Notes under the pieces: model-generated
What the model was told of the DNA's origin: nothing
Seen by the model: the letters and a program-made list of their open reading frames with translations, nothing else
Database searches by the model: none
Made by a program: the position numbers and the translations under genes
Part shown: positions 264-51,305 of the stretch, piece after piece
How the letters are laid out: each line of letters begins with the position of its first letter
How positions within the stretch are numbered: the first letter of the stretch is position 1
Assembly (NCBI RefSeq): GCF_009696675.1
Contig: NZ_VULN01000008.1
Location: 1-64,000, forward strand
Direction: 5' to 3'
DNA: 64,000 nt
Source: Acidaminococcus fermentans
GTDB taxonomy: Bacteria > Bacillota > Negativicutes > Acidaminococcales > Acidaminococcaceae

Positions 264-1118
264 ATGAAGAAATTTTGTTTTTTGTTTTTGATAATCTGTG
301 GCTTGATGGTTTTCTGCCTTCAGGATTGTCAAGCGCGGCAGAAATTAAATCTTGCTGATCTGGAAAATAAATATAACGCCGTGATTGGTGTTTACGCCGT
401 TGACATGGAGAATGGAAAAAAAATTTGCTACAAACCTGATACGCGTTTTTCCTACTGCTCGACACACAAAGTTTTTACGGCTGCAGAATTGCTAAGACAA
501 AAAAATACCTCCGATTTGAATGAAATTCGTAAGTTTTCGGCGGAAGATATTTTGTCCTACGCGCCAATCACCAAAGACCATGTTGCTGATGGCATGACGC
601 TGGCGGAAATTTGTTCGGCATCGCTCAGGTGGAGTGACAACACGGCGGCAAATTTAATTTTGCAGGAGATCGGCGGCGTGGAAAATTTCAAGGTGGCACT
701 TAAAAATATTGGCGACAAAACTACCAAACCTGCGCGAAATGAACCTGAACTTAATCTTTTCAATCCAAAAGATAATCGTGATACTAGCACGCCGAGACAG
801 ATGGTAAAAAATTTGCAAGTCTATATATTCGGCGATATTTTGAGCGACGACAAGAAAAAACTGCTGATTGATTGGATGAGCGACAATTCCATAACCGACA
901 CGCTTATCAAGGCAGAAACTCCGCAAGGTTGGAAAGTTATCGACAAGAGCGGTTCAGGCGATTATGGGGCGCGGAATGATATTGCCGTGATTTATCCGCC
1001 CAATCGCAAACCCATTGTCATGGCGATAATGTCGCGCCGCACGGAAAAAAATGCAAAATCTGACGACGCTATGATTGCGGAGGCGGCAAAACGAATTTTT
1101 GATAATTTAGTATTTTAA
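264..1118 (+). CDS. aci1: Class A beta-lactamase, ACI-1 type
   Basis: Periplasmic serine hydrolase that opens the beta-lactam ring. The 284-residue length fits class A. A Sec signal peptide covers about residues 1-24. The active site is intact: S66-T-H-K69 (SxxK), S124-D-N126 (SDN), E160-P-E-L-N164 (the Glu166/ELN omega-loop motif) and K228-S-G230 (KTG equivalent). The start is supported by GTAGGAGG seven bases upstream. It matches my memory of ACI-1, the beta-lactamase of Acidaminococcus, reported on a transposon within a prophage. The gene is AT-rich relative to the phage and faces the recombinase genes convergently, with a shared terminator between. No transposase adjoins it in the window. 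Confidence 0.95.
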   Translation: MKKFCFLFLIICGLMVFCLQDCQARQKLNLADLENKYNAVIGVYAVDMENGKKICYKPDTRFSYCSTHKVFTAAELLRQKNTSDLNEIRKFSAEDILSYAPITKDHVADGMTLAEICSASLRWSDNTAANLILQEIGGVENFKVALKNIGDKTTKPARNEPELNLFNPKDNRDTSTPRQMVKNLQVYIFGDILSDDKKKLLIDWMSDNSITDTLIKAETPQGWKVIDKSGSGDYGARNDIAVIYPPNRKPIVMAIMSRRTEKNAKSDDAMIAEAAKRIFDNLVF

Positions 1119-1319: not shown

Positions 1320-2888
1320 TTATGCTCTGATTTCCGTCCCGTCCTTGAAGGTCACCCAGATATCGTCTTTGCTGTACACTGTGATGAAATCCACCAGGCT
1401 GCCCCACAGCCGGGCATCGAACTCCTTAATGAGATCCTGATTCCTAAGCTCCTTGATGAAGCTGTCCATCTGACGGCTCCGGGCCTTGCGATACTGGATG
1501 GCTTCACAGGTCTTGTCGTACTGCGTCTTCGCTGCTTCATACCGACTGACCAGTTCGTTGTAGTTCCGGTCATAATCATCCTGGTTCTGCGCGACCCTGG
1601 CGTTCTCGGCTATGAGCTGCTGTATCTTGTCGGCCAGCAGGTTCAAATCTGTGCTTATCCTGTCCCGCTCCTCTTCCAAGTCTTCTGTGTCAGTGAGCCG
1701 TTCCTTCAGCAGTGTGATGCTGTCAAGTACGTCCGCTTTGTTTTCGATGAGCTGATTGACGGCCCGGACGAAGGCTTCCTTGATATCATCCTCTGTCAGA
1801 TGTGGTGTCTTGCAATGGCTCTTGAACTTATCGTTGCATCGGTAGATGGTTCTGCGGTACTTGTCGGTCGAATGCCAGACCTTGGCCCCGTACCAGCCTC
1901 CGCACTGGCCGCACTTGATTTTGCTGGAGAAGATGGATACGCCGCTGTAACGTCCCCTGCCTTCACGCCGCCGCTTGATTTCTTCCTGTACCCAGTCGAA
2001 GACCTGCGGGCTGATGATGGCTTCGTGGTTATTTTCCACATAGTACTGCGGCACTTCCCCTTCATTCGCTTTCGTTTCTTTGGTCAGGAAGTTGACGGTG
2101 AACCGCTTCTGCAGCAGGGCATCGCCCTTGTATTTCTCATTTGTCAGGATGCTCTCTACCGTCCCCGGATACCAGCGTTTCTTTCTTGCCGGAGTTTCCA
2201 GCCCTCTGGAAGTCAGCTCCCTGGCAATGGAGTGGAAGGTATACCCGTCCAGGAACAAGCGGTAAATCAGTTTCACCGTCTTGGCCTGTTCCCGGTTGAC
2301 GACCAGATTCCCGTCCGGTCCCCGGTCATAGCCAAGGAAATGGCCGAACGGCACACACACCTTCCCGTCAGCGAATCGCTTCCGATGGCCCCAGGTGACG
2401 TTTTCCGAGATGCTCCTGCTTTCTTCCTGCGCCAGGGAACTCATGATGGTGATGAGGAGTTCGCCCTTGGCATCGAGCGTCCAGATATTTTCCTTCTCGA
2501 AATATATCTCGATGCCCTTGTCCTTGAGCTTGCGTACCGTTGTCAGGCTGTCTACGGTATTTCTGGCGAAGCGGCTGACTGATTTTGTGACGATGAGGTC
2601 GATTTTCCCATCCATGGCATCCCTGACCATCCGCTTGAAGCCATCGCGGTGACGCGTGTTGGTAGCCGAGATGCCTTCATCGGTGTAGATGCCGACAAAT
2701 TCCCAGTCATCCCGTTCCCTGATATAGTTCGTATAATAATCGACCTGTGCTTCATAGCTGCTGATCTGGTCATCATGGTCCGTGGAAACCCTGGCATAGC
2801 CCGCTACTCTCCGCTTCTTCCGGCTGTTAATCGGAGCCGCCGTATAACGGCTGATGGTGGCCGGGATGGCCCTTACTGTCTTTGCCAC
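1320..2888 (-). CDS. Large serine recombinase (distal of tandem pair)
   Basis: A 522-residue site-specific recombinase that would cut and rejoin DNA through a serine phosphodiester. Domains in order: resolvase catalytic domain with the nucleophile S35 in YARVST; the recombinase domain; a zinc ribbon (CGQCG ... C-x6-C); and a C-terminal coiled coil rich in E, K and R. The start is taken as GTG at 2888 because AAAGGAG lies just upstream; a longer frame would run far into the preceding gene. It overlaps the upstream recombinase by 16 bases, so the two are translationally coupled and may act as a pair. Integrase or excisionase of the prophage is the likely role; transposase of an aci1 element is the alternative. 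Confidence 0.9.
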   Translation of the reverse strand: MAKTVRAIPATISRYTAAPINSRKKRRVAGYARVSTDHDDQISSYEAQVDYYTNYIRERDDWEFVGIYTDEGISATNTRHRDGFKRMVRDAMDGKIDLIVTKSVSRFARNTVDSLTTVRKLKDKGIEIYFEKENIWTLDAKGELLITIMSSLAQEESRSISENVTWGHRKRFADGKVCVPFGHFLGYDRGPDGNLVVNREQAKTVKLIYRLFLDGYTFHSIARELTSRGLETPARKKRWYPGTVESILTNEKYKGDALLQKRFTVNFLTKETKANEGEVPQYYVENNHEAIISPQVFDWVQEEIKRRREGRGRYSGVSIFSSKIKCGQCGGWYGAKVWHSTDKYRRTIYRCNDKFKSHCKTPHLTEDDIKEAFVRAVNQLIENKADVLDSITLLKERLTDTEDLEEERDRISTDLNLLADKIQQLIAENARVAQNQDDYDRNYNELVSRYEAAKTQYDKTCEAIQYRKARSRQMDSFIKELRNQDLIKEFDARLWGSLVDFITVYSKDDIWVTFKDGTEIRA

Positions 2889-4552
2889 TTTTCTCCGCTC
2901 TCCTTTCTCCGTGCCTTGGGACGCCGCTTGGATGGCGTAGGCGTATAAGAAATCTCTTCTGTTCTCCCACTCTTGAAATGGACAGTCAGGCAATTTGGCT
3001 TTCCGGCTTCGATATATTCCACTTTCTCCCTAAATCTATCCTCATCAAAAGCTTTTACCCCCATGGCCTCTGCGGCCACACGCTTCAGGTCATCTTCCCG
3101 GATGCTGACCGATTCACATTTGCCGCCTTTGCTGCATCGCCAATAAACAGGCCTGTCATGCTTCGTTTTGCACCGCCGGAAAGAGGATCCGCACAAGGCG
3201 CACCGGACACGTGTCGTAAAGGCGGAGAACCGTGTTCCCTTGCCATTGGCCATGTAGTTTTTCATCCATGCCCTCTGGCGATCCTTATACTCATCGGTCC
3301 AGCAATCCTTCTTCGCCGTTGATACCCAGTGCCGGATAAGTTTCTGTCCGTTTTTCATACAGAAAACCATCACATGGTATTCTGGCACTACTATCTTTTC
3401 GACCCGGTCAAGAAACGCCTGCTCATCGAAATCATCCAGGCCTAGGACTTCTGTACTCTCCTTCACGAGGACTGCATGCGGGATACTGCCTTTTGCGCCG
3501 CAATTCCGGCCTTTCAGTTTATGGGAGCCGCAATCCCAGAATTCTTCAAAGCCCCGGTCTGTGCGGCGATTGTGCATATAACTCCGACCGCAGATGCCGC
3601 ATTTGATTTTTCCCGTGAAGCAGGTCGTGTTCAAGGACTTATTGGCCAGCGCCCCCAGTTCCTTTCGCCGCGCCATCTCCTGCTGCACGTAATCAAAGGT
3701 TTCCTTGTCGATGATAGGCTCATGCGTGTTTTCAACATAATACCTAGGAAGTTCGCCCCGGTTCTTCTTCCGCTTCTTGAGGATTGGATCCGTCACATAT
3801 TCCTTCTGGAAAAGCATATTGCCGGTATAGGTAACATTGGTCAGGACAACCCTGATGTTGGAATCCATCCAGCGGCAGCCATTCCGGGTCGTGATGCCTT
3901 CGGCTGCAAATTCCCGTTCGGTTTCAAGACGTGACTTGCCATCCAGGAAATTCTGGAATATGCGTCTGACAACAGCCGCTTCCTTGGGGACTATCACCAG
4001 GGTATCCCCTTCCCAACGATACCCGTAAACACGGAACCGCCCGTTAGGATTCCCCTGCTCAAATTGTTTCTTGATACGCCACCGGATATTTTCACTAATG
4101 GAACGGCTTTCTTCCTGGGCAAAAGATGCGAGGATGGTCATCATCAATTCCCCATCCCCGCTCATGGTATGGATATTTTCTTTCTCGAACCAGACCTCGA
4201 CGCCTTGCTCTTTCAGCTGGCGTACTGTCTGGAGGAGGTCGACCGTATTCCGGGCAAACCGCTGGATGGATTTGGTGAGGATGATGTCGATTTTGCCCGC
4301 TTCCGCATCTTCCAGCATGCGCTGAAAATCCTGCCGCTTTTTGATGCCCGTCCCGGATATGCCGTAGTCCGCATAGACACCGGCGTATTCCCAGTCTGGG
4401 TTCTTCTGGATCAGGCTGCTGTAATAGCTGACCTGTGCCGAAAGGGAATGCTGCATCCGCTCCGATTCCATGGAGACACGGGCATAGGCTGCGACTTTCT
4501 TGCGCTTCTTGATTTTAGGTATGCTTTGTTCGATTTTACGGATAGTCCGCAT
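2873..4552 (-). CDS. Large serine recombinase (proximal of tandem pair)
   Basis: A 559-residue recombinase with the catalytic S27 in YARVSM, then the recombinase domain and two separate zinc ribbons (CGICG around residue 325; CALCG around residue 450), one more than its partner. The start is ATG 4552, seven bases after AAAGGAG; a GTG 21 bases earlier has no ribosome binding site. A promoter of the AGAGTGATATAT family lies directly upstream. Gene order (HTH/zinc protein, SHOCT protein, recombinase, recombinase) is one I recall from Firmicutes prophages. Which of the two carries out integration cannot be read from the sequence. Confidence 0.9.
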   Translation of the reverse strand: MRTIRKIEQSIPKIKKRKKVAAYARVSMESERMQHSLSAQVSYYSSLIQKNPDWEYAGVYADYGISGTGIKKRQDFQRMLEDAEAGKIDIILTKSIQRFARNTVDLLQTVRQLKEQGVEVWFEKENIHTMSGDGELMMTILASFAQEESRSISENIRWRIKKQFEQGNPNGRFRVYGYRWEGDTLVIVPKEAAVVRRIFQNFLDGKSRLETEREFAAEGITTRNGCRWMDSNIRVVLTNVTYTGNMLFQKEYVTDPILKKRKKNRGELPRYYVENTHEPIIDKETFDYVQQEMARRKELGALANKSLNTTCFTGKIKCGICGRSYMHNRRTDRGFEEFWDCGSHKLKGRNCGAKGSIPHAVLVKESTEVLGLDDFDEQAFLDRVEKIVVPEYHVMVFCMKNGQKLIRHWVSTAKKDCWTDEYKDRQRAWMKNYMANGKGTRFSAFTTRVRCALCGSSFRRCKTKHDRPVYWRCSKGGKCESVSIREDDLKRVAAEAMGVKAFDEDRFREKVEYIEAGKPNCLTVHFKSGRTEEISYTPTPSKRRPKARRKESGEKWQRQ

Positions 4553-4573
4553 AAAATCAGCTCCTTTCGACAC

Positions 4574-5211: not shown

Positions 5212-5232
5212 TTCAAGGGCAAAAAAAAATTA

Positions 5233-5254
5233 CGGACGCCCATGTGAGCATCCG
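5233..5254. terminator. Bidirectional terminator
   Basis: CGGACGC and GCATCCG pair around an 8-base loop with one G-T pair. ATTTTTC follows on the + strand and TAATTTTTTTTT on the - strand. It isolates the recombinase operon from its surroundings. Confidence 0.7.
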
Positions 5255-5322
5255 ATTTTTCATTACTTGTACTAAACAATAAGTACTGCTGTATTGTACC
5301 TATAGTAGCCTTCGTTGCAGTG

Positions 5323-5331
5323 TGTTATAAT
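5323..5331 (+). promoter_or_regulatory. Extended -10 promoter of the glycosylase-nuclease operon
   Basis: TGTTATAAT is a perfect extended -10 (TGnTATAAT), about 68 bases before the start at 5399. No good -35 box is present. The leader contains CACACC and GGTGTG, able to pair over a 27-base loop. Confidence 0.6.
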
Positions 5332-5398
5332 TAAAGAAATTCGATATAAACACACCATAGCTTAGAAAATTTACAGACGGTGTGTACAAGGAGTTTCT

Positions 5399-6049
5399 AT
5401 GGCCGCTATCGTCACCTTGAATCAAGACAGTCCTTCTGTCCAATATTTATGCAAAAAAGATAAACGGCTTGCAAAAGTCATCAGTATGGTAGGTCCGATT
5501 TCCTATGAACCACACACTGATAATCCCTTTCCTTTTCTAATCCATGAAATCATCGAACAGATGCTGTCGGTAAAAGCCGGAGCAAAAATCTATGGACGGT
5601 TTGAAGAATTGTGTGAGGGTCAGATAACCCCGGAGGCTATCTCAAAGCTCTCCGTTGAGGAAATCAAGGCAATTGGTACTTCTACTGCCAAGGCTAACTA
5701 TATAAAAAACGCAGCTTCAGCCGTCTTGTCAGGAGAACTCGATTTTACGAAGTTCCCTGATATGACGGATGAAGCTGCGCTCAAAGAATTAGTCAGCCTT
5801 CGCGGCATTGGTACTTGGACCGCAAAGATGTATTTGATTTTCGTCCTGGACAGACAGGACATCTTGCCATTCGAAGACGTTGCTTTTTTACAAAGCTACA
5901 AATGGCTTTACAAAACAGAAGATGTGTCGAAAGCATCTATAGAAAAGAAATGTAAAAAGTGGAAGCCCTACTCCTCCATTGCTGCCCGGTTTCTTTACCG
6001 TGCTTTGGACATGGGCTATACGAAAGAAGCGTTTCACTTATATAAATGA
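5399..6049 (+). CDS. AlkA-like DNA glycosylase (HhH-GPD family)
   Basis: A 216-residue base-excision enzyme that would flip out and cleave a damaged or modified base. The helix-hairpin-helix is at residues 131-143 (LVSLRGIGTWTAK) and the likely catalytic aspartate is D160 in LPFEDVAF, in the position expected for AlkA-type enzymes. Start ATG follows AAGGAG. The gene ends 17 bases before the large nuclease-like gene and shares its promoter, so the two form an operon. In a restriction island this suggests action on modified DNA bases, for instance in invading phage; ordinary alkylation repair cannot be excluded. Confidence 0.85.
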   Translation: MAAIVTLNQDSPSVQYLCKKDKRLAKVISMVGPISYEPHTDNPFPFLIHEIIEQMLSVKAGAKIYGRFEELCEGQITPEAISKLSVEEIKAIGTSTAKANYIKNAASAVLSGELDFTKFPDMTDEAALKELVSLRGIGTWTAKMYLIFVLDRQDILPFEDVAFLQSYKWLYKTEDVSKASIEKKCKKWKPYSSIAARFLYRALDMGYTKEAFHLYK

Positions 6050-6066
6050 AGTGAGGAGATTTTGAC

Positions 6067-8109
6067 ATGAAAAAAATCTATCGAATTCATGGTGATAATA
6101 TTGTTGAATGTGAACGGATTGCTAATTTAATTTTAAATGAAGTGCATCCTCAAAATATGAAAAAGACTCTTATATCTCCTGCAACTATTTCTGAGAATAT
6201 AATTTTTTCCTATTCAGGGTTTGACTTTGAATGGGAGTTAATATTATTGCCCGGATTTAATAAAGCTGGTCGTTCTCGTTGGAAGGGAGATATATTTAAA
6301 GCATTAAGAGAAAATGGTAGTTTCTTAGATGAAACCCCTGATGCAATTATTACAGAAGTCACTAACAATAGTGAAAAAATCATATGCGCAATTGAGTTCT
6401 GTAGCGCATTACAAGCAGGTAATCAAGCTTGGCAAAGAAGTGGTCGTGCCTTTTCCACAGGAAGAACAGGATGTCCATATATCTATATCGTGGATTTTGT
6501 AAAATATGAACTCGATCCCCAAACACGAAATCGCAAAGCTTTACGATTTCCTAATGCAGCTGTCCCCTATAGCTATGTGAACTTTTCTAGAGTATCTGGA
6601 AATTTTGTTGCCCAAGTTTACGTTAAATCAGAATCATTTGATAAAGAATTCGACTCCGCGCTTAAAAATTTTGATGAAAATAACTTCGCTGAAAAAGATC
6701 TCTCTTCTTTTTTGGTGAAAACGATGGCGGGACTTGACACATCATCAGAAAGGAATTCTATACTCACTAAAAATTTTAATGTAGTTTGCTTTTTATCTGA
6801 ATCTGCAAAAGAAAATACTAATTTTACATCTTCAGATTGGAAAAAAATCCAAAAAACAGGTCAAAATGTAATTGATTATTGTATTGCAAATGCACGTTTT
6901 AATTTTCACAAAAAAATCACTAAAAAGGGCGCCCATGGCCATATACTTGAAGTTTTAAGTTTAATCGATAAACTAAGCGTTGGTTTCACATCTCGAGATC
7001 TTCCAATTGGTATCATACCCGCAAAAAATCGTATTGCTTTAGCAAATGGGATAAAAAAGATTTATCCTAATTTCAATGATGCCACTATATCTCAATTAAG
7101 CAATACTGAAAAAAATCTTGTACTATGCTTAATTAAAGGGTTTAAACCTCGTGGAGATGATAATCGGCCAGACCGAGGATTACTCCCATTAGCCGCGATG
7201 CTTTCAGATAATAAAAACGAAACATTAACAATCATTTATGGCCCATTATTATTCAATAATTATAAACTACTATTAAATCATCCTAGGCAGCTAGCAAAGG
7301 CAAATGGATTATGGAAATCAATACTTTCCTTAAGTGATTTTTTGATTTTAGATGTTCCAATTCTCTCAAATTCAGACATCAAAGATGCCGAAGAATTAAT
7401 TAGCACTTCTTCTTTAAAACAATATTATATAGGTAAAAATCATACTAATCCCAATTTGGAAAATGAAGTCTTTTCAAATTCTCCGCGTGAATATCATGAA
7501 GATGATGTTGATACAGGAATCCATTATACGTTCACAAAGGTCTTGAAAAAATACTGCTTTGAAGGAATGTGCAATCCTCCTGGTGGAGACTGGAGTGGAT
7601 TTTCAATCATTGATAATAACAAAGAAAAACGATGGTTATCTCTGCCACGCGTAAGTGAAGATGTTAATGGAAAACGCCCGGATCACATTCTTGAACTTTT
7701 TGGTGTTTTTGACAAGCCATTACTTCTAAGTATCGAATCAAAAGAAAAATCATCAGACCTAGAGCCGTCAGTAGGCATTGGGTTAATTAATTATATAAAA
7801 AGTCTAATGAGCTACATTCCAAATGTCGAACGTTCTATAAATCCAGAAGGCCCTTGGTATCGTCCTATAAAAGCGGTAGATTTCGATAAATTTAAAGTAA
7901 TCTCTGCCGCAGCTTATTTAGAGAACAATGCAGAAGAAGACGCAGTTGTGCATCGTAATAGTCAGTGCGATATGCTATTCATAATGGCTCCCAAATCAAT
8001 AGGATGGAAAATAAAAATCGTACCATTTACTATGGACGCTACAACTCTAAAAAAAAGAATGGTCGAAATTATAAATTCATCAACTGATGGAACTATAGAA
8101 ATTGAATAA
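6067..8109 (+). CDS. Large PD-(D/E)XK-like restriction protein
   Basis: A 680-residue protein that I do not recognise as a named enzyme. The C-terminal part has a good nuclease pattern: RPD at 537-539, then a strand ending in E557-S-K559. A second, weaker pattern lies near the N terminus: T-P91-D92 and AIE110 without the usual lysine two residues on. No ATPase or helicase motif is visible. It is encoded convergently with two adenine methyltransferases and so is the best candidate for the cutting subunit of a restriction-modification system. It is strongly AT-rich compared with the phage genes, which points to recent acquisition. Recognition site unknown. Confidence 0.65.
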   Translation: MKKIYRIHGDNIVECERIANLILNEVHPQNMKKTLISPATISENIIFSYSGFDFEWELILLPGFNKAGRSRWKGDIFKALRENGSFLDETPDAIITEVTNNSEKIICAIEFCSALQAGNQAWQRSGRAFSTGRTGCPYIYIVDFVKYELDPQTRNRKALRFPNAAVPYSYVNFSRVSGNFVAQVYVKSESFDKEFDSALKNFDENNFAEKDLSSFLVKTMAGLDTSSERNSILTKNFNVVCFLSESAKENTNFTSSDWKKIQKTGQNVIDYCIANARFNFHKKITKKGAHGHILEVLSLIDKLSVGFTSRDLPIGIIPAKNRIALANGIKKIYPNFNDATISQLSNTEKNLVLCLIKGFKPRGDDNRPDRGLLPLAAMLSDNKNETLTIIYGPLLFNNYKLLLNHPRQLAKANGLWKSILSLSDFLILDVPILSNSDIKDAEELISTSSLKQYYIGKNHTNPNLENEVFSNSPREYHEDDVDTGIHYTFTKVLKKYCFEGMCNPPGGDWSGFSIIDNNKEKRWLSLPRVSEDVNGKRPDHILELFGVFDKPLLLSIESKEKSSDLEPSVGIGLINYIKSLMSYIPNVERSINPEGPWYRPIKAVDFDKFKVISAAAYLENNAEEDAVVHRNSQCDMLFIMAPKSIGWKIKIVPFTMDATTLKKRMVEIINSSTDGTIEIE

Positions 8110-8148
8110 AAATAGGGGGAGATGAACCTCCCCCCTATTTTTATTCAA
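8102..8148. terminator. Bidirectional terminator between convergent R-M genes
   Basis: TTGAATAAAAATAGGGGGAG (8102-8121) pairs with CTCCCCCCTATTTTTATTCAA (8128-8148) with one bulged C. Both stop codons lie in the stem. Both flanks give T-runs, so each strand has its own terminator. Confidence 0.85.
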
Positions 8149-8954
8149 TAATTCATATATATGGATTCATACACTTGCTGCGATTCTTTATCCATAACCT
8201 TTTTAAAGCTAGAATTTCCAGAAGCAATAAATTTATGTCTTTTGTAAAGTTCTTTAGGGAGATTAACTGTATAATCAGTATCTCCGCGTTTTCCATCGAA
8301 TGAAAGCATATACTTTATTCCCCGGCTGTTTAATTTCTCTAAAAAAATCACGAATTCGTCAAAATCAATAGATTTCGTCCCATAATACCGTCCTACAGTA
8401 TGGAAATATGGCGGATCTAAATAAATAAAATCACCTGCGGTTGCACTTGCTGTAGTCGTTACATAATCGTTTGCTAGGAATAGCGTTCCTTTTATACGCT
8501 TTGACCAGTCCATAATAATTTTTTCCAGACTTTCAGGTTTAATACCTTTTCTCGTGTGATGCAATGAGTTATTAAACTCACCTTTGGCGTTAAATCGTAT
8601 AAGGCCATTGACACATGTTCGCGATAAAAACATCAAATCTTCTGGCGAATGGGTCCGGTTAAAATCATCACGAATAGAATAATACGCCTCATATCCTTCG
8701 CTCTGTAATCTATTCCAGCGCAATGTATATGCTTCAGCTAACTCTTCTGGTCTATCTTTTATTTCATTCCAAAGAGCAATCAGTGGTTCGCAAATATCGC
8801 CACAGATAGCCTTTTGTGGATGAATTGCATATAAAATTGAACCACCACCAACAAAAGGTTCGAAATAAGTATTAAATTGAGCGGGGATATTTTTTAAAAT
8901 CTCATCTGCCTGTGATCTCTTACTCCCACTCCATTTTATTACTGGTTTTATCAT
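8145..8954 (-). CDS. DNA adenine methyltransferase, D12 (Dam/DpnM) class
   Basis: A 269-residue N6-adenine methyltransferase using S-adenosylmethionine. The order of motifs is that of the alpha (D12) class: KWSGSKR near the N terminus, FEPFVGGGSI (31-40) for cofactor binding and DPPY at 180-183 for catalysis. Its start overlaps the stop of the upstream methyltransferase gene by four bases (ATGA), so both are made together. A D12 plus a second N6 enzyme is the arrangement of DpnII/MboI-type systems, which methylate GATC; the target here is not shown. Confidence 0.9.
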   Translation of the reverse strand: MIKPVIKWSGSKRSQADEILKNIPAQFNTYFEPFVGGGSILYAIHPQKAICGDICEPLIALWNEIKDRPEELAEAYTLRWNRLQSEGYEAYYSIRDDFNRTHSPEDLMFLSRTCVNGLIRFNAKGEFNNSLHHTRKGIKPESLEKIIMDWSKRIKGTLFLANDYVTTTASATAGDFIYLDPPYFHTVGRYYGTKSIDFDEFVIFLEKLNSRGIKYMLSFDGKRGDTDYTVNLPKELYKRHKFIASGNSSFKKVMDKESQQVYESIYMNY

Positions 8955-9910
8955 TTGATTTCATCTTTCTTTTCAATATTTATTTCCATATCAAATATGG
9001 ATAATTGGTCATCATCAGTCTTTTTATTATTATTTTTTCTGCTTTCTTTCTTTTTAGATGCTGCTTCTTCAGTCATCTCATTTGGATTATCAATTTTTTC
9101 TTCATTAAATTCAATATCAGCATTTTTTAACCGTTCTTCTGCTATATTAATATATTGCTTATCTATTTCAAATCCAAGATAATGTCTTTGACATTCTTTT
9201 GCAGCTACACACTCACTTCCTGCTCCTGCAAACGGAGTCATCATTATGTCCCCCACCTTTGATGACAATCGAATCATTCTTTTTATTATCTTGATAGGCT
9301 TTTGTGTAGGATGCTTTCCATATGCTAACTCTTTTCGAGCTTTGTTATTAGAAATATCCCAAACAGTACGCATCTGCTTTCCTGAACTTTTTAATTCATC
9401 TTTGCTAAAATCTCCATTTTTCGAGTAATTGTAGTTGAAATAATATTCCCTTTTCTTTGCGCCTTTATTACACCACAGGATAGTTTCGTGACTTGCTGTT
9501 AATCTGCGACCAGAAAGATTAGGAAAAGCATTTTTTTTATACCAAATAACTTCATTGATGATTTCGATTTTCAATAATTGGCAAACAACATTAATGATTC
9601 CTATGTTGTGATAAGTTCCAAAAATCCACATAGATCCTGTTGGCTTTAAAATTCTTTTCGCTTCTGTAAGCCATGCCTTAGTAAATTCAAAATAGGTTTC
9701 TAAAGTATAGTCATCCCACGACTGCATGACTTTATTCCAATTTCCACCCATACCGTCAAGTTTTACACTATTATCCCATTTCCAAGTCCCACCTTTTGAA
9801 AGATTATATGGAGGATCTGCTATTATCAAACCTACACTATCATTTGGAAGTTTTTTCATACCTTCCACGCAATCTATATCATAAATTTTATCAATATCTA
9901 ATATATTCAT
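8951..9910 (-). CDS. DNA N6/N4 methyltransferase, DpnA-like class
   Basis: 319 residues. DPPY lies at 32-35, ahead of the cofactor motif (MTPFAGAGSECVAA, about 225-238), which is the beta-class order. The C-terminal 45 residues are charged and lysine-rich and look like an added tail. The gene is second in a leftward operon with the HARE-HTH gene upstream and the D12 methylase downstream. It probably protects the same site as the D12 enzyme, on the other strand or on single-stranded DNA as DpnA does; that role is inferred. Confidence 0.88.
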   Translation of the reverse strand: MNILDIDKIYDIDCVEGMKKLPNDSVGLIIADPPYNLSKGGTWKWDNSVKLDGMGGNWNKVMQSWDDYTLETYFEFTKAWLTEAKRILKPTGSMWIFGTYHNIGIINVVCQLLKIEIINEVIWYKKNAFPNLSGRRLTASHETILWCNKGAKKREYYFNYNYSKNGDFSKDELKSSGKQMRTVWDISNNKARKELAYGKHPTQKPIKIIKRMIRLSSKVGDIMMTPFAGAGSECVAAKECQRHYLGFEIDKQYINIAEERLKNADIEFNEEKIDNPNEMTEEAASKKKESRKNNNKKTDDDQLSIFDMEINIEKKDEIK

Positions 9911-9919
9911 TTTTTCCTC

Positions 9920-10168
9920 TTAATCATTAAGATAGTATTTTGCTGGTTTTTTTGATGTTTGCTTAAAACGAACATGACTTGCGCTAGCAATATGTCTTCT
10001 AATGCTCGCATTTAATGTGTTTTCAGGTGTCTTACCCACAGAAATCAATTTTTTATCAAGTCTCATTTTTAACGCGTATTCCCAAATCTCCGGAATCGTC
10101 ATTTCACATTTTTCTTCTCGTAACACTTCTTCAATAAGATCAAGATAAGTATATCCCTTATGCGACAT
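9920..10168 (-). CDS. HARE-HTH winged-helix protein
   Basis: 82 residues matching the HARE-HTH pattern: YLDLIEEVL, then MTIPEIWEYALKMRLD and a helix with NTLNASIRRHI. This domain is known from restriction and chromatin proteins and has been proposed to read modified DNA. Start ATG 10168 has AAAGGAGA upstream; a longer frame beginning at 10213 has none. It heads the operon of the two methyltransferases, so it may regulate them or supply DNA recognition to the system. A stand-alone HARE-HTH protein is small for the family. Confidence 0.75.
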   Translation of the reverse strand: MSHKGYTYLDLIEEVLREEKCEMTIPEIWEYALKMRLDKKLISVGKTPENTLNASIRRHIASASHVRFKQTSKKPAKYYLND

Positions 10169-10342
10169 TATATTCTCCTTTGCATTCAACAGTGTGATGG
10201 TTGCTGAATACATAATGATTATGGAACATCATTGCATTCAATCGTATTCCTATTATACAAAAAACTCAGTAGCAAGGCAAGAAAACAAAAGAATTATTTA
10301 AACAAGAGCAAAAAATAGTATTTTAGGCTTTACATGGCAATG

Positions 10343-10385
10343 AAAGCCGGTATGGAACATCTCCCTGATGTCCCATACCGGCTTT
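10343..10385. terminator. Terminator at the end of the phage late operon
   Basis: A 13-bp stem (10343-10355 with 10373-10385) continues inward through five more pairs (ACATC/GATGT) after one mismatch. The flanking T-runs are short. It ends the leftward lysis/tail transcript and separates it from the AT-rich R-M island. The 174 bases between the HARE-HTH start and this stem are AT-rich, with no gene seen. Confidence 0.75.
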
Positions 10386-47569: not shown

Positions 47570-48070
47570 TTAGCGATAGTCTTTAAGACGGTCCTGCAAC
47601 AATGCAAAGAGCTTGTGCTTGCGCTTATTCACCGCTTTCTGGCTCAGCCCGACTGACTCCCCGACCGCCGCTTCGCTGAAGCCGTCGGCAATCATCGTCA
47701 GGATGGTCCGGTCGATGTCTTGCAGTGCAGCCAGTTCTCGCCGGAGAGCCATCAACCGTTCTTTCTTCAGAATTGACTCCTCTAAATCAAAGTCGTCGGG
47801 TACTTCCAGCTCGTAGTCATCCCGCACTTTGTCCGCCGATACTTCATCGGCACCATGCCGCTGCTGGCGCTTATCTTCCCGCCAGAGCGGACGCATGTAT
47901 TCACGATACTGTTCTTCAGTTGCCGGAATCAGGACAGTACGAACCTTACGGCAGCCGATTTTTGACCAGCGGACTTCACAGTCCTTGTATTCCTCGGTGA
48001 TGACGGTTTCTGGAGTGCGTTCCAGAGGAATGTAGTATTGCTTCTGTTTGTTTGTCTGTAGATTGGCCAT
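47570..48070 (-). CDS. Sigma-factor-like early phage regulator
   Basis: 166 residues from ATG 48070 (GGAGATC upstream). The N-terminal 80 residues hold conserved aromatic patches (YYIPLERTPETVITEEYKD, EEQYREYMRPLW). The C-terminal 60 residues are sigma region 4-like (LAALQDIDRTILTMIADGFSEAAVGESVGLSQKAVNKRKHK). It is the first early gene after the repressor and could drive the next operon, including the three GTACTTAAC elements. Not tested. Confidence 0.82.
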   Translation of the reverse strand: MANLQTNKQKQYYIPLERTPETVITEEYKDCEVRWSKIGCRKVRTVLIPATEEQYREYMRPLWREDKRQQRHGADEVSADKVRDDYELEVPDDFDLEESILKKERLMALRRELAALQDIDRTILTMIADGFSEAAVGESVGLSQKAVNKRKHKLFALLQDRLKDYR

Positions 48071-48455
48071 GCGCGATCTCCTTCGCATAATGCGAAGCGA
48101 GAATCCACGCAGGCAGCCTGTCGAAATTGACCATAAGATGCATCCTCGCTTCTATGGCCAACCATCCCAGTAGGCTGACGTGATTAACTTTCCAGACCGT
48201 CTCTCGGCTCTGGGCACACCCGCGTCCGGGAGTGAACGTTGAGACGGAAATTTCATTCAAATGTCTTTATAAGCTCATCTATTTCCCCAAGGTATGATAA
48301 AATATAAGTAATTCATGGTGTTTCCTTGGTTGTCCAGATGCTTGCTCATTGGTTCTGCCTTAATTCTAGCAATTCCCTCTCGTCAAAAATCGGACTGGAT
48401 GGACAGCCTCGGACAATTTCGGACAGCATCAATCGGTTAAAGGGAGGTATATGAT
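48071..48455. promoter_or_regulatory. Early control region with phased GGACA repeats
   Basis: No convincing gene is seen. A palindrome CTTCGCATAATGCGAAG (48081-48097) overlaps the AAGGAG of the sigma-like gene and could mask it. AT-rich TATGATAAAATATAAG lies near 48292. Four GGAC units at 48392, 48401, 48411 and 48421 are spaced by one helix turn, just before the start of the + strand gene at 48456; they look like an operator array. Confidence 0.45.
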
Positions 48456-49292
48456 TTGAACTTTTCAGAATTTGCAACCGGGTTGTTTCCTTTTTGCTCT
48501 GGTCACCTAGGCAAAGAACAATACTTTAATGAAATTATTGGAAATTTTATTCAGGATTCCGCCATGGATTCATGTCCGATTCTTGAGAAGAAGCCTGACA
48601 CTAAATATCGTTATTTAAGCGGCAAACGTGTTATTCCACTTAAAGAGGCTAAATACATTTATAATCATCGTGATAAGAAAAAATTTTCCCAATGGATTGC
48701 AACTCAAACCGATGAATTTGATTCATATGACGGTGTAGTAGGCTGGTTAAAAAGCAATGGTATAAATGATACTTATGCAGACGATGCTTGTGCCGATTTA
48801 TTCGAGCAGATTTTATGTGATATTGTTTCTTCATCAAAAAATAAGCGCTCTCTTAAACCACCAATATCAAAGCTATTATCAGGCAGAGACTTAGAGCATC
48901 TTGATAAATTTATGAACGATTTTAACGAAATTCTGAAATTTTGTATTAGCACAGATCCTACAATTGAACCTATGCCACTTGAACTTCCAACACAATTCGA
49001 TATGTTATATGAAATGTGGAAATATAGAGATACCGATTTTAAAAATGCGAAGCTCAATTCACTAAAATATGATATTATTAATAATCTCTACGATTATTTT
49101 TCTTATTGGGGACTTTTGATGTCATATGATACAGTTAGCGGCTATTGTGTATATAAAAAGCCACTTTATCCAAGAAGTGAAGAAGTTAAAAAATCCCATC
49201 AAAAAAAGATGCTTGCTTTTAGAAAGATATTTGCTAATTTGCATGAAAATCTATGTGAATTCGTTAATAATGCCGATTTGCCGATACAATAA
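48456..49292 (+). CDS. Putative moron in the immunity region
   Basis: 278 residues from TTG 48456, with GGGAGG eight bases upstream. AT-rich, soluble and helical. Segments: YRYLSGKRVIPLKEAKYIYNH, DEFDSYDGVVGWLKSNGIND, ADDACADLFEQILCDIV. The middle reads like the small domain seen in some phage-defence and three-component proteins, but I cannot assign it. It is convergent with the repressor operon and outside the leftward early operon, so it may be expressed in the lysogen, for example as an exclusion function. Confidence 0.7.
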   Translation: MNFSEFATGLFPFCSGHLGKEQYFNEIIGNFIQDSAMDSCPILEKKPDTKYRYLSGKRVIPLKEAKYIYNHRDKKKFSQWIATQTDEFDSYDGVVGWLKSNGINDTYADDACADLFEQILCDIVSSSKNKRSLKPPISKLLSGRDLEHLDKFMNDFNEILKFCISTDPTIEPMPLELPTQFDMLYEMWKYRDTDFKNAKLNSLKYDIINNLYDYFSYWGLLMSYDTVSGYCVYKKPLYPRSEEVKKSHQKKMLAFRKIFANLHENLCEFVNNADLPIQ

Positions 49293-49297
49293 AAAAA

Positions 49298-49336
49298 GAG
49301 CTATCTACATGACCTTTCAGTCAATATAGATAGCTC
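49298..49336. terminator. Terminator between + strand gene and repressor operon
   Basis: GAGCTATCTA (49298-49307) with TAGATAGCTC (49327-49336). On the - strand it ends in TTTTTTT. It can also stop the + strand transcript. Confidence 0.8.
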
Positions 49337-49387
49337 CATTTTACAGCTCCGCATAAAACACATCGGGCTATTGAGGTAACTTCTACT

Positions 49388-49588
49388 TTATCTTAGTAAG
49401 CTTATATCTTTTGCTGCATCCACCTGGGATACAACATCTTCCCAAGGGATCTGCACAAGTTTTCTTTGACTAGTCTTAATTTCGAGTATGACTTTATCTC
49501 CTTCAACGATAGCATCAAAAACTCGTTGTCCATTAAGAGTTGTATCGTGCAAATTTCTAATCTGTTTCCTAATTTTCACCATATACAC
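49388..49588 (-). CDS. Small protein of the repressor operon
   Basis: 66 residues, no family recognised: QIRNLHDTTLNGQRVFDAIVEGDKVILEIK. Mostly beta strands with charged ends. It follows the repressor gene by 11 bases and ends before a terminator, so both are one transcript. Could be an immunity accessory or antitoxin-like factor; no evidence. Confidence 0.65.
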   Translation of the reverse strand: MYMVKIRKQIRNLHDTTLNGQRVFDAIVEGDKVILEIKTSQRKLVQIPWEDVVSQVDAAKDISLLR

Positions 49589-49599
49589 TGCCTCCTCTT

Positions 49600-50403
49600 T
49601 TAAAATGGAATTTCTTCATCAAACTGTTGTGGCGGATCATCCTCATTTTCACCTTTCATGAAAGAATCAATGATATACCTGAATTCCTGCTTTACTTTTG
49701 GATGCTTTGTATTTTCAGCCACTGCTGCATAAAGGTTGTTAATGAACTCTGCCAGTTTGGAATCGCCATGATCACTGCACAGATATTGCGGTTCTTGTCC
49801 CGGTATGCTCATCCATATCTCTTTTGCAAAGACCTCCGAGTCATTGGTACGATACACACTCTTAGAAATATTCATGAGGTGCAAGTAGGCTCCATTCTTT
49901 AACCTCAATTCGAAACAATCCCCATGAATCGAAGTATGAACACCGAACGAATTTGAAACAAATACGACTCTTGAAACCTCTTCCGGGTACTCGCTCTCTC
50001 CCTCTTCATAGAAACGATGAAAATCAAATAATGGATGATTTGTAATACCATTCTGATCCGTTTCCATGTTGTTTAAACTTTCTGCCGAAACTCTTTCCCA
50101 GGCTAACAAATCATGAACTGTATCATGTTCCAACTTTTTCAAAAATGATATTAAATATCGTTCCGTCGGTGTGAGCGAAGATATATCCACTTTCAAAAGA
50201 GTATCGATACTAACATGGAGTACTTTTGCTATATTCATAATGAAATCAATACCTGGCCGACTTCCACCGTCCTTGCTAGTTCTAGATATATATCCGGCGC
50301 TGACACCTGCATCACTTTCAACCTCACCAATTTTCCGGTTCTCACTTTTTATTAAGAAGTCAACATTGTCAAACAGTACCTTAGGATTGAACTGTTCCGT
50401 CAT
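49600..50403 (-). CDS. XRE-family phage repressor
   Basis: 267 residues from ATG 50403 (AGGAGG ten bases upstream). N-terminal helix-turn-helix: LIKSENRKIGEVESDAGVSAGYISRTSKDG...GIDFIMNIAKVLHVSIDTLL. The C-terminal part (about 110-240) has no visible LexA-type peptidase site and is acidic. It probably keeps the lytic operons off. It has a strong promoter of its own. Confidence 0.85.
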   Translation of the reverse strand: MTEQFNPKVLFDNVDFLIKSENRKIGEVESDAGVSAGYISRTSKDGGSRPGIDFIMNIAKVLHVSIDTLLKVDISSLTPTERYLISFLKKLEHDTVHDLLAWERVSAESLNNMETDQNGITNHPLFDFHRFYEEGESEYPEEVSRVVFVSNSFGVHTSIHGDCFELRLKNGAYLHLMNISKSVYRTNDSEVFAKEIWMSIPGQEPQYLCSDHGDSKLAEFINNLYAAVAENTKHPKVKQEFRYIIDSFMKGENEDDPPQQFDEEIPF

Positions 50404-50433
50404 ATCTATCATTCCTCCTTTGATTATATGTAA

Positions 50434-50462
50434 ATAATATCATGTTTTTACCTATACGTCAA
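50434..50462 (-). promoter_or_regulatory. Promoter of the repressor gene
   Basis: On the - strand TTGACG (50462-50457), 17 bases, TATTAT (50439-50434): five of six matches in both boxes. Confidence 0.8.
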
Positions 50463-50548
50463 TATTTTAAAAAAGTTGATTTATAGGCCAATTATTCCGC
50501 AGTTCTGGTATCTTATTGAACTTAAGGATTTTCCCAGCGGTCATCCTT

Positions 50549-50586
50549 TACGGCAGTAACGATAAAAAGCTATCGTTACTGCCGTA
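50549..50586. repeat. Perfect 16-bp inverted repeat near the right prophage end
   Basis: TACGGCAGTAACGATA (50549-50564) and TATCGTTACTGCCGTA (50571-50586) with a 6-base loop. T-rich DNA follows on the + strand only. It could be a + strand terminator shielding phage and host, or a recombination-related site. The rest of 50404-50705 holds only the repressor promoter and a small GC stem with T7 near 50650. Confidence 0.6.
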
Positions 50587-50705
50587 TTCTTATTGCCGTC
50601 TTTTTCTTCGCCTTTGCCTTAAGGCCACTCCCCTATTTCCAGGCACAAAAAAAGCCGGCCATCTGCCGACGTTTGCCAAGCCCCCGCTATATATGGACTT
50701 TTCCA

Positions 50706-51305
50706 CTATGCACACCGTCCCCAATATTGTATCAATCCCAAGCATCTTTGCTCACAGATTACATCTTCCGGGTTGGGCGTCACCAGGTCCACCATCATAC
50801 GGATGATATGCCGGGGCGTACGGAACTGACCATTGGTCCCGGCAGTAGCGATTTTGGACAACAGGTATTCATAGAGATCTCCCCGGATATCGCTGTCCTT
50901 CCAATCGATTTCGTCCATGGCCGTAACAATCTGTTCCAACAGTTGGGGTGTGGGAATCTTGAAAATGGCATCGGCCATGTATTTGGAATAGGCACTTTCT
51001 TCATCCCCGTGAAGTCCCTTGATAAAAGGAAATACCTGTTCCTGGACAATTTTATACATTTCTTCAGCAGGATAGTTTTTAAATTGGGACCACCGGCACA
51101 GCTGATGAGTTTCATCGAAGATACTGTTATAAGGAATTCCCAGCATCAGGCTGCTGGAACTTTTTTCGTTGTCCACCACATCCAGTTCCCGGATGAACAT
51201 CAGGTACGTAATCTGTTCGATCACATCCAGCGGATTGGTAATTCCACCGGTCCAAAACATTTGCCAAAGACGGTCTACTTTATTTTTCAGTTCACCAGTA
51301 ATCAC
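50706..51305 (-). pseudogene. hsdM: Type I methyltransferase HsdM, truncated by the prophage
   Basis: About 184 residues of genuine HsdM N terminus (VITGELKNKVDRLWQMFWTGGI, DVIEQITYLMFIREL, TAGTNGQFRTPRHIIRMMVDL), then about 15 foreign residues to TAG. Full-length HsdM is near 500 residues; the missing part includes the cofactor and NPPF motifs. GTG 51305 follows AAGGGG. No hsdS or hsdR is seen in the window. The lysogen should lack this methylase, and excision could restore it. Confidence 0.85.
50745..50757. other. Right prophage-host junction (attR candidate)
   Basis: Reading hsdM on the - strand, homology runs through NPEDVIC and should continue DPACGTGG. Instead it becomes EQRCLGLIQYW and stops. 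The break is therefore near 50751-50753. Without the left junction the core repeat cannot be named. Confidence 0.55.

What the first reader, a model, noticed from the sequence alone, without database searches (positions are those of the whole stretch)
5399..10168. Prophage-borne restriction island with glycosylase, double-nuclease-like protein, two methylases and HARE-HTH
An AT-rich block between integrase cassette and lysis genes holds two convergent operons: AlkA-like glycosylase plus a 680-residue PD-(D/E)XK-like protein, and HARE-HTH plus two adenine methyltransferases. Two methylases of D12 and beta class are known from DpnII-type systems. A base-excising glycosylase co-transcribed with the cutter, and a HARE-HTH reader beside the methylases, is not a combination I know. 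It might sense or excise modified bases of invading phages. Glycosylase-based defence has precedent (for example Brig1).
Basis: partly seen in the sequence, partly recalled or inferred. Interest (0 to 1): 0.72.

Follow-up and report, generated by a model that had tools for sequence, protein, structure and literature searches.

The report
Prophage BsmI-type system with travelling glycosylase
A prophage carries a restriction-modification system related to the known enzyme BsmI, next to a DNA-repair-like base-removing enzyme whose family turns out to travel in phages with at least ten unrelated kinds of restriction system, which suggests an overlooked helper of restriction.

Summary
The five genes are real. 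The 680-aa protein is a full-length homologue of the known type IIS enzyme BsmI (47% identity, both active sites conserved). The two methylases match the two halves of one type II methylase model. This core occurs in all related BsmI loci read, mostly without glycosylase or HARE-HTH, so it is ordinary. Empty prophage sites define the island as 5213-10342.

The glycosylase is the surprise. It belongs to one clade (SH-aLRT 99) of small AlkA-fold enzymes, nearly all in phages or prophages. They sit beside at least ten different type II restriction-enzyme families, with m5C or m6A methylases: 22 of 24 independent loci with enough flank have a methylase within 6 kb. Controls: 0 of 22 ordinary AlkA loci and 1 of 33 phage amidase loci (itself a glycosylase locus). 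In sister prophages the glycosylase (93-95% identical) is kept while the R-M cassette downstream is swapped. It is under purifying selection and has no PHROGs family; I found no paper on it.

Its substrate is unknown. It usually lies in the restriction operon, so I favour an auxiliary that excises non-canonical bases of incoming DNA; repair of R-M-caused lesions is a close rival. Orphan copies, and close R-M systems without it, show it is accessory.

The parts
5213..10342 (.). whole inserted island; the prophages in L148 and L150 lack it and join sequence homologous to 5212 and 10343 within about 10 bases
5399..6049 (+). AlkA-fold HhH-GPD DNA glycosylase (GLY), 216 aa; catalytic Asp160; constant part of the slot in sister prophages
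6047..10342 (.). segment replaced by other R-M cassettes in sister prophages L032/L076 and L077
6067..8109 (+). BsmI-family type IIS restriction endonuclease, 680 aa, sites P91-D92..E110 and P538-D539..E557-S-K559
8114..8135 (.). two-way intrinsic-terminator-like stem between the convergent operons
   Evidence: consensus scan
8145..8954 (-). D12 class N6-adenine methyltransferase; matches the C-terminal half of the 626-aa model PDLC03302
8951..9910 (-). beta-class (CcrM-like) amino-methyltransferase; matches the N-terminal half of PDLC03302
9920..10213 (-). HARE-HTH small protein, probable regulator of the methylase operon

Best explanation
Shown: the island is a complete BsmI-type IIS R-M system plugged into an accessory slot of a temperate phage, beside a glycosylase from a phage-borne clade of AlkA-fold enzymes that recurs with unrelated type II R-M systems. 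Inferred: the endonuclease cuts both strands of an asymmetric site (GAATGC in BsmI), the two methylases each protect one strand, and HARE-HTH regulates the methylase operon. Inferred and least certain: the glycosylase is an auxiliary of the restriction arm. It is usually co-directional with the restriction enzyme and in many relatives lies behind a small Cro/C1-type regulator. It would remove non-canonical (alkylated or hypermodified) bases from incoming DNA that the endonuclease cannot cut, leaving abasic sites, and it must spare the m5C and m6A of the resident methylases.
For: BsmI: E 9e-184, 47% identity over the whole length, both PD-(D/E)XK motifs. The methylases match the two halves of one type II methylase model. 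The methylase-REase core is present in the related BsmI loci read. Glycosylase: one clade of 27, support 99. A methylase lies within 6 kb in 22 of 24 independent loci, against 0/22 AlkA controls (Fisher 4e-11) and 1/33 phage amidase loci. Ten PADLOC type II REase families occur beside it, with m5C and m6A methylases. Cassette swap ending at the glycosylase stop codon; empty sites. dN/dS 0.05-0.12 in the informative pairs. Catalytic Asp and aromatic pocket conserved; model pLDDT 91, best match B. halodurans 3-methyladenine glycosylase, TM 0.88. In about 15 loci the next gene on the same strand is the REase or an unassigned ORF in its place. It accompanies systems of either methylation chemistry, so it is not tied to one methylation product.
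Against: No substrate evidence. L018 has an REase very close to that of L004 but no glycosylase, and L147 has another R-M system in the same slot without one, so it is not needed for restriction. Orphan chromosomal copies exist: L078, L080. The pocket keeps residues of alkylation-repair enzymes. Some loci also carry Vsr (L039, L114) or an Ogg-type glycosylase (L035, L037), which fits a repair theme.
Confidence: 0.45

Rival explanations
1. Repair helper. R-M systems damage their own host: methylases may put methyl groups on ring nitrogens (1-methyladenine, 3-methylcytosine). The AlkA-fold glycosylase, like Deinococcus AlkA2 (own knowledge), would remove these in hosts without AlkB. This would be a Vsr-like role with another lesion.
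For: Closest folds are B. halodurans and Deinococcus 3-methyladenine glycosylases; W140, M144, D160 and Y191 are shared with AlkA controls. None of ten genomes that carry the glycosylase has an AlkB match, and the host has only two other HhH-GPD proteins. Works for m5C and m6A systems alike. Vsr and Ogg-type genes share some loci. Orphans, and outside relatives beside ada/ogt.
Against: It sits in the restriction operon rather than the methylase operon in most convergent loci. No locus was recognised as a solitary methylase without restriction-like genes, although some partners are unassigned. It is almost confined to phages.
Confidence: 0.35
2. Passenger or recombination anchor: the glycosylase is a phage gene that happens to flank an R-M hot spot and offers homology for cassette exchange.
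For: The swap border lies exactly at the end of the glycosylase gene in sister prophages. The slot can be empty or hold an R-M system without it.
Against: The same clade sits beside R-M genes in many unrelated phages with other flanks. REase family PDLC03473 pairs with non-sister glycosylases (AU p 2e-11). Empty sites lack both glycosylase and R-M. Strong purifying selection and conserved catalytic residues.
Confidence: 0.1
3. The glycosylase is itself a sequence-specific restriction enzyme, of PabI style, blocked by the resident methylases.
For: Restriction glycosylases exist (PMC4357717, PMC10273834), and this gene often lies between a C-like regulator and the REase gene.
Against: Different fold from PabI (HALFPIPE); the same glycosylase type goes with methylases of different specificity and chemistry; an ordinary REase is already present.
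Confidence: 0.04

Closest known systems
BsmI R-M system (PDB 9f38, 9ezd, 9ez5, 9ez7; PADLOC PDLC03434 and PDLC03302)
   Same: Full-length REase homology, two active sites, beta plus D12 methylase pair
   Different: Methylases are two genes, where the PADLOC model is one 626-aa chain; glycosylase and HARE-HTH added; specificity not tested
Small AlkA-type 3-methyladenine glycosylases (B. halodurans 2h56, Deinococcus AlkA2 2yg8, S. pombe Mag1 3s6i)
   Same: Fold, HhH-GPD motif, catalytic Asp, pocket aromatics
   Different: Separate clade with its own near-invariant residues (e.g. M55, C72, K143, C185, R197, D204) and mostly a FHLFK-type tail; linked to R-M genes instead of repair genes
Brig1 and Brig3 anti-phage glycosylases
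   Same: Stand-alone glycosylase genes in a defence setting; Brig1 homologues are sometimes near restriction genes
   Different: Those are uracil-DNA-glycosylase superfamily; this is HhH-GPD
Vsr repair endonuclease and Mig-type mismatch glycosylase linked to m5C R-M systems
   Same: DNA-repair enzyme carried as an R-M accessory
   Different: Those correct T:G from m5C; this one goes with m6A as well as m5C systems and coexists with Vsr in two loci
R.PabI restriction glycosylase
   Same: Base excision within an R-M system
   Different: Other fold; there the glycosylase is the restriction enzyme itself

Membership tests
BsmI-type IIS R-M | REase homologous to BsmI over its length | tested here: met
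   E 9e-184, residues 3-655, 47% identity
BsmI-type IIS R-M | two PD-(D/E)XK catalytic sites | tested here: met
   both motifs identical to BsmI in the alignment; the E of SIESK is V in entry 9ezd
BsmI-type IIS R-M | two adenine methylase domains, one for each strand | tested here: met
   the two genes match the two halves of PDLC03302, with DPPY motifs; strand assignment not tested
BsmI-type IIS R-M | recognition of GAATGC | not testable with these tools
   no site avoidance seen in the window, 19 observed against 20.1 expected, which decides nothing
AlkA / HhH-GPD glycosylase | HhH-GPD domain with catalytic Asp and fold | tested here: met
   Pfam 3e-15; D160 invariant; TM 0.88 to 2h56
AlkA / HhH-GPD glycosylase | excises alkylated bases | not testable with these tools
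   needs an enzyme assay
Brig family | uracil-DNA-glycosylase superfamily fold | tested here: not met
   fold and Pfam are HhH-GPD; Brig1 and Brig3 are UDG superfamily
PabI restriction glycosylase | HALFPIPE fold and role as the only restriction enzyme | tested here: not met
   HhH-GPD fold; a BsmI homologue is present
Vsr / Mig R-M repair accessory | linked to m5C methylases and acting on T:G | tested here: not met
   window methylases are D12 and beta class; Vsr is a separate gene in L039 and L114. T:G activity itself not testable
DpnII-type | DpnII-like REase | tested here: not met
   the REase is BsmI-type
HARE-HTH | Pfam PF05066 above the curated cut-off | tested here: met
   38.3 against 25.9 bits
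HARE-HTH | reads modified DNA | not testable with these tools
   suggested in the literature, not experimentally settled (PMC11037411)

The most novel reading that the evidence does not exclude
Temperate phages carry a two-layer restriction module: an exchangeable type II enzyme that cuts unmodified DNA, and a constant, co-regulated AlkA-fold glycosylase that destroys DNA with modified bases. It would be a third fold used for base-excision immunity, besides UDG (Brig) and HALFPIPE (PabI).
Probability: 0.33. Interest if true: 0.82.

Novelty: new variant of a known kind. Interest (0 to 1): 0.62.

Why it matters
R-M systems are among the most studied defences, yet a glycosylase family that follows at least ten unrelated restriction-enzyme families in phages has no PHROGs family and no dedicated PADLOC or NCBIfam model, and I found no paper on it. 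Whichever role holds, it is testable at once: either base-excision immunity is built into ordinary R-M systems, or R-M systems cause a DNA lesion common enough to need a dedicated repair enzyme. The gene also serves as a marker to find unknown restriction enzymes in the neighbouring slot.

Tried and rejected
DpnII-type: rejected because the REase is BsmI-type. Novel five-gene system: rejected because most BsmI loci lack glycosylase and HARE-HTH. Glycosylase as repair of m5C deamination: rejected as a general role because the window has m6A-type methylases and Vsr coexists in two loci. GAATGC avoidance in the window: none, 19 against 20.1. Single-sequence pattern scans for the REase found nothing; the two-row alignment did. 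The BsmI-type REase was not found in the phage collection and was found on one Leptotrichia plasmid. No dedicated BsmI structure paper turned up. The window and L003/L004 glycosylases do not form an exclusive clade (AU p 7e-5), but a five-row clade with L076/L077 is not rejected (p 0.19), so one or two origins of the glycosylase-BsmI pairing stay open. dN/dS was not usable for saturated pairs, nor for L034, whose gene appears frameshifted; the near-identical pair L076/L077 gave 0.56 on very few changes. The beta-clamp-like look of the FHLFK tail is only an idea.
Full report
**What is there.** The five genes exist as described in a block of 32-34% G+C inside DNA of about 50-55%. To the right lie endolysin, tail and baseplate genes, so the host element is a prophage. 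To the left lie two large serine recombinases and a beta-lactamase that passes the ACI-family cut-off.

**The restriction system is BsmI-type.** The 680-residue protein has no Pfam match but matches BsmI in the PDB at E 9e-184 and 47% identity over residues 3-655, and the PADLOC type II REase PDLC03434. Both catalytic motifs are conserved: P91-D92..E110 and P538-D539..E557-S-K559. The BsmI entry 9ezd differs at the second Glu. The beta and D12 methylases match residues 2-276 and 359-626 of one 626-aa methylase model. In related loci the same REase and methylase genes recur, in Clostridia, Negativicutes, Synergistales, Bacteroidales, an Aeromonadales MAG, a Leptotrichia plasmid and one viral contig, mostly with no glycosylase. 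HARE-HTH was found only in the window, L004 and L018, with a truncated piece at the contig end of L003. Several other loci have a 74-76 aa XRE-type protein between the methylase genes. So the nuclease-methylase core is ordinary, and HARE-HTH most likely takes a regulator's place (inference).

**Borders of the island.** Prophages in two other genomes (L148, L150) lack the island: homology to the window stops at 5212 and resumes at 10343 within about 10 bases. The insert therefore carries glycosylase and R-M together, 5213-10342.

**A natural swap.** Three other records (L032; L076 = G128; L077 = G194, the two genomes being of another family in the same class) share the window's left side at about 95% DNA identity up to base 6046-6051, the end of the glycosylase gene. 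They then lose all similarity until 10343. In place of the BsmI cassette they carry an EcoT38I-like REase (PDLC03473; PDB 7e8r, E 2e-49) with an m5C methylase, or a PDLC03480 REase with an m5C methylase. A fourth (L147) has in the same slot an N6/N4 methylase and an unassigned 214-aa gene, without glycosylase. The slot is an R-M hot spot, and the glycosylase is its frequent but not obligatory constant part.

**The glycosylase clade.** A profile search of 250 genomes of the class showed a wide score gap between this subfamily (260-405 bits for intact copies) and ordinary AlkA (at most about 157 bits). A search of 380 genomes of the class gave 8 strong copies. Scans of viral contigs and phage records added about 19 more. 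The 27 placed in a tree form one clade apart from 24 other AlkA-type sequences (SH-aLRT 99). After removing duplicates and contig ends, 22 of 24 loci have a methylase within 6 kb. The two others are orphan chromosomal copies (L078, L080; L078 is on a short contig). With the same profiles, 0 of 22 scored AlkA loci have one, and 1 of 33 phage amidase loci, which is itself a glycosylase locus (Fisher 4e-11 and 2e-12). One locus (L043) was added by PADLOC and Pfam after the profiles missed its methylase, and many amidase loci have a short flank on one side.

The neighbouring REases fall in ten PADLOC families: PDLC03434, 03402, 03473, 03480, 03470, 03525, 03564, 03489, 03526, 03475. The last is next to a broken glycosylase copy (L083). 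Further loci have unassigned ORFs in the same place. The methylases are m5C in most, m6A or N6/N4 in others. One REase family (PDLC03473) pairs with glycosylases that are not sisters (AU p 2e-11). A more distant AlkA relative sits beside a SacI-family R-M system on an Aeromonas plasmid, which looks like a separate recruitment.

**Function of the glycosylase.** The AlphaFold2 model (pLDDT 91) matches B. halodurans and Deinococcus 3-methyladenine glycosylases, TM 0.88 and 0.81. W140, M144, D160 and Y191 are shared with ordinary AlkA relatives, while about 15 positions are nearly invariant only in this clade. dN/dS is 0.05-0.12 in the informative close pairs, so the protein is constrained. Most members lie directly before the REase gene on the same strand, many behind a small Cro/C1-type regulator. 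That position, the spread over m5C and m6A systems and the near confinement to phages favour a role with restriction, such as attack on DNA with non-canonical bases. The AlkA-like pocket, the absence of AlkB in ten carriers, the orphans, and the neighbouring Vsr (L039, L114) and Ogg-type genes (L035, L037) favour repair of R-M-caused lesions. I weigh these about 0.45 to 0.35. No computation here decides it.

**Comparison with the known.** Brig1 and Brig3 excise modified phage bases but are UDG superfamily (PMC11078745, PMC13160076). PabI is a restriction glycosylase with another fold (PMC4357717, PMC10273834). Vsr and Mig are m5C-linked repair accessories (own knowledge; Vsr seen). No paper found in the held library describes an AlkA-type accessory of type II systems, and the protein has no PHROGs family.

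**Limits.** The controls are one class of genomes plus a few plasmid and phage records, and one phage gene. The loci found depend on peptide patterns. Host names are withheld; kinship with a Phascolarctobacterium-like genome is inferred from matching hits. Recognition sequence, methylation and all activities are untested.

Noticed in passing
window 264-1118 with 1320-4573: Class A beta-lactamase above the NCBIfam blaACI cut-off beside two large serine recombinases; the same block is about 95% identical in genomes of another family of the class.
   Followed up: partly
L147:7201-8923: Same prophage slot holds a different R-M-like set (71 aa, N6/N4 methylase PDLC03215, unassigned 214 aa) without glycosylase.
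   Followed up: partly
L035:7774-8586 and L037:9309-10136: A second glycosylase, Ogg-type (OGG_N plus HhH-GPD), lies beside the m5C methylase in two of the glycosylase loci.
   Followed up: partly
L039:5008-5451 and L114:6655-7086: Vsr mismatch endonuclease in the same locus as the AlkA-like glycosylase and m5C methylases.
   Followed up: yes
L026/L037 (368-369 aa), L042 (347 aa), L040 (313 aa), L041 (496 aa): Unassigned proteins in the restriction-enzyme position next to the glycosylase; candidate new REases.
   Followed up: partly
L031 (Aeromonas caviae plasmid pKAM339_3) 2798-5561: D12 methylase, SacI-family REase and a distant AlkA-like glycosylase in a row near a carbapenemase gene; apparently an independent R-M-glycosylase pairing.
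   Followed up: partly
glycosylase C-terminus, window 6032-6046: Core members end in a conserved FHL(F/Y)K tail that loosely resembles a sliding-clamp binding motif.
   Followed up: no
L013 and L014: Nearly identical BsmI loci in genomes labelled Synergistales and Clostridia, pointing to recent transfer or binning error.
   Followed up: no
window 48001-51000: A second AT-rich stretch (36-42% G+C), not examined.
   Followed up: no
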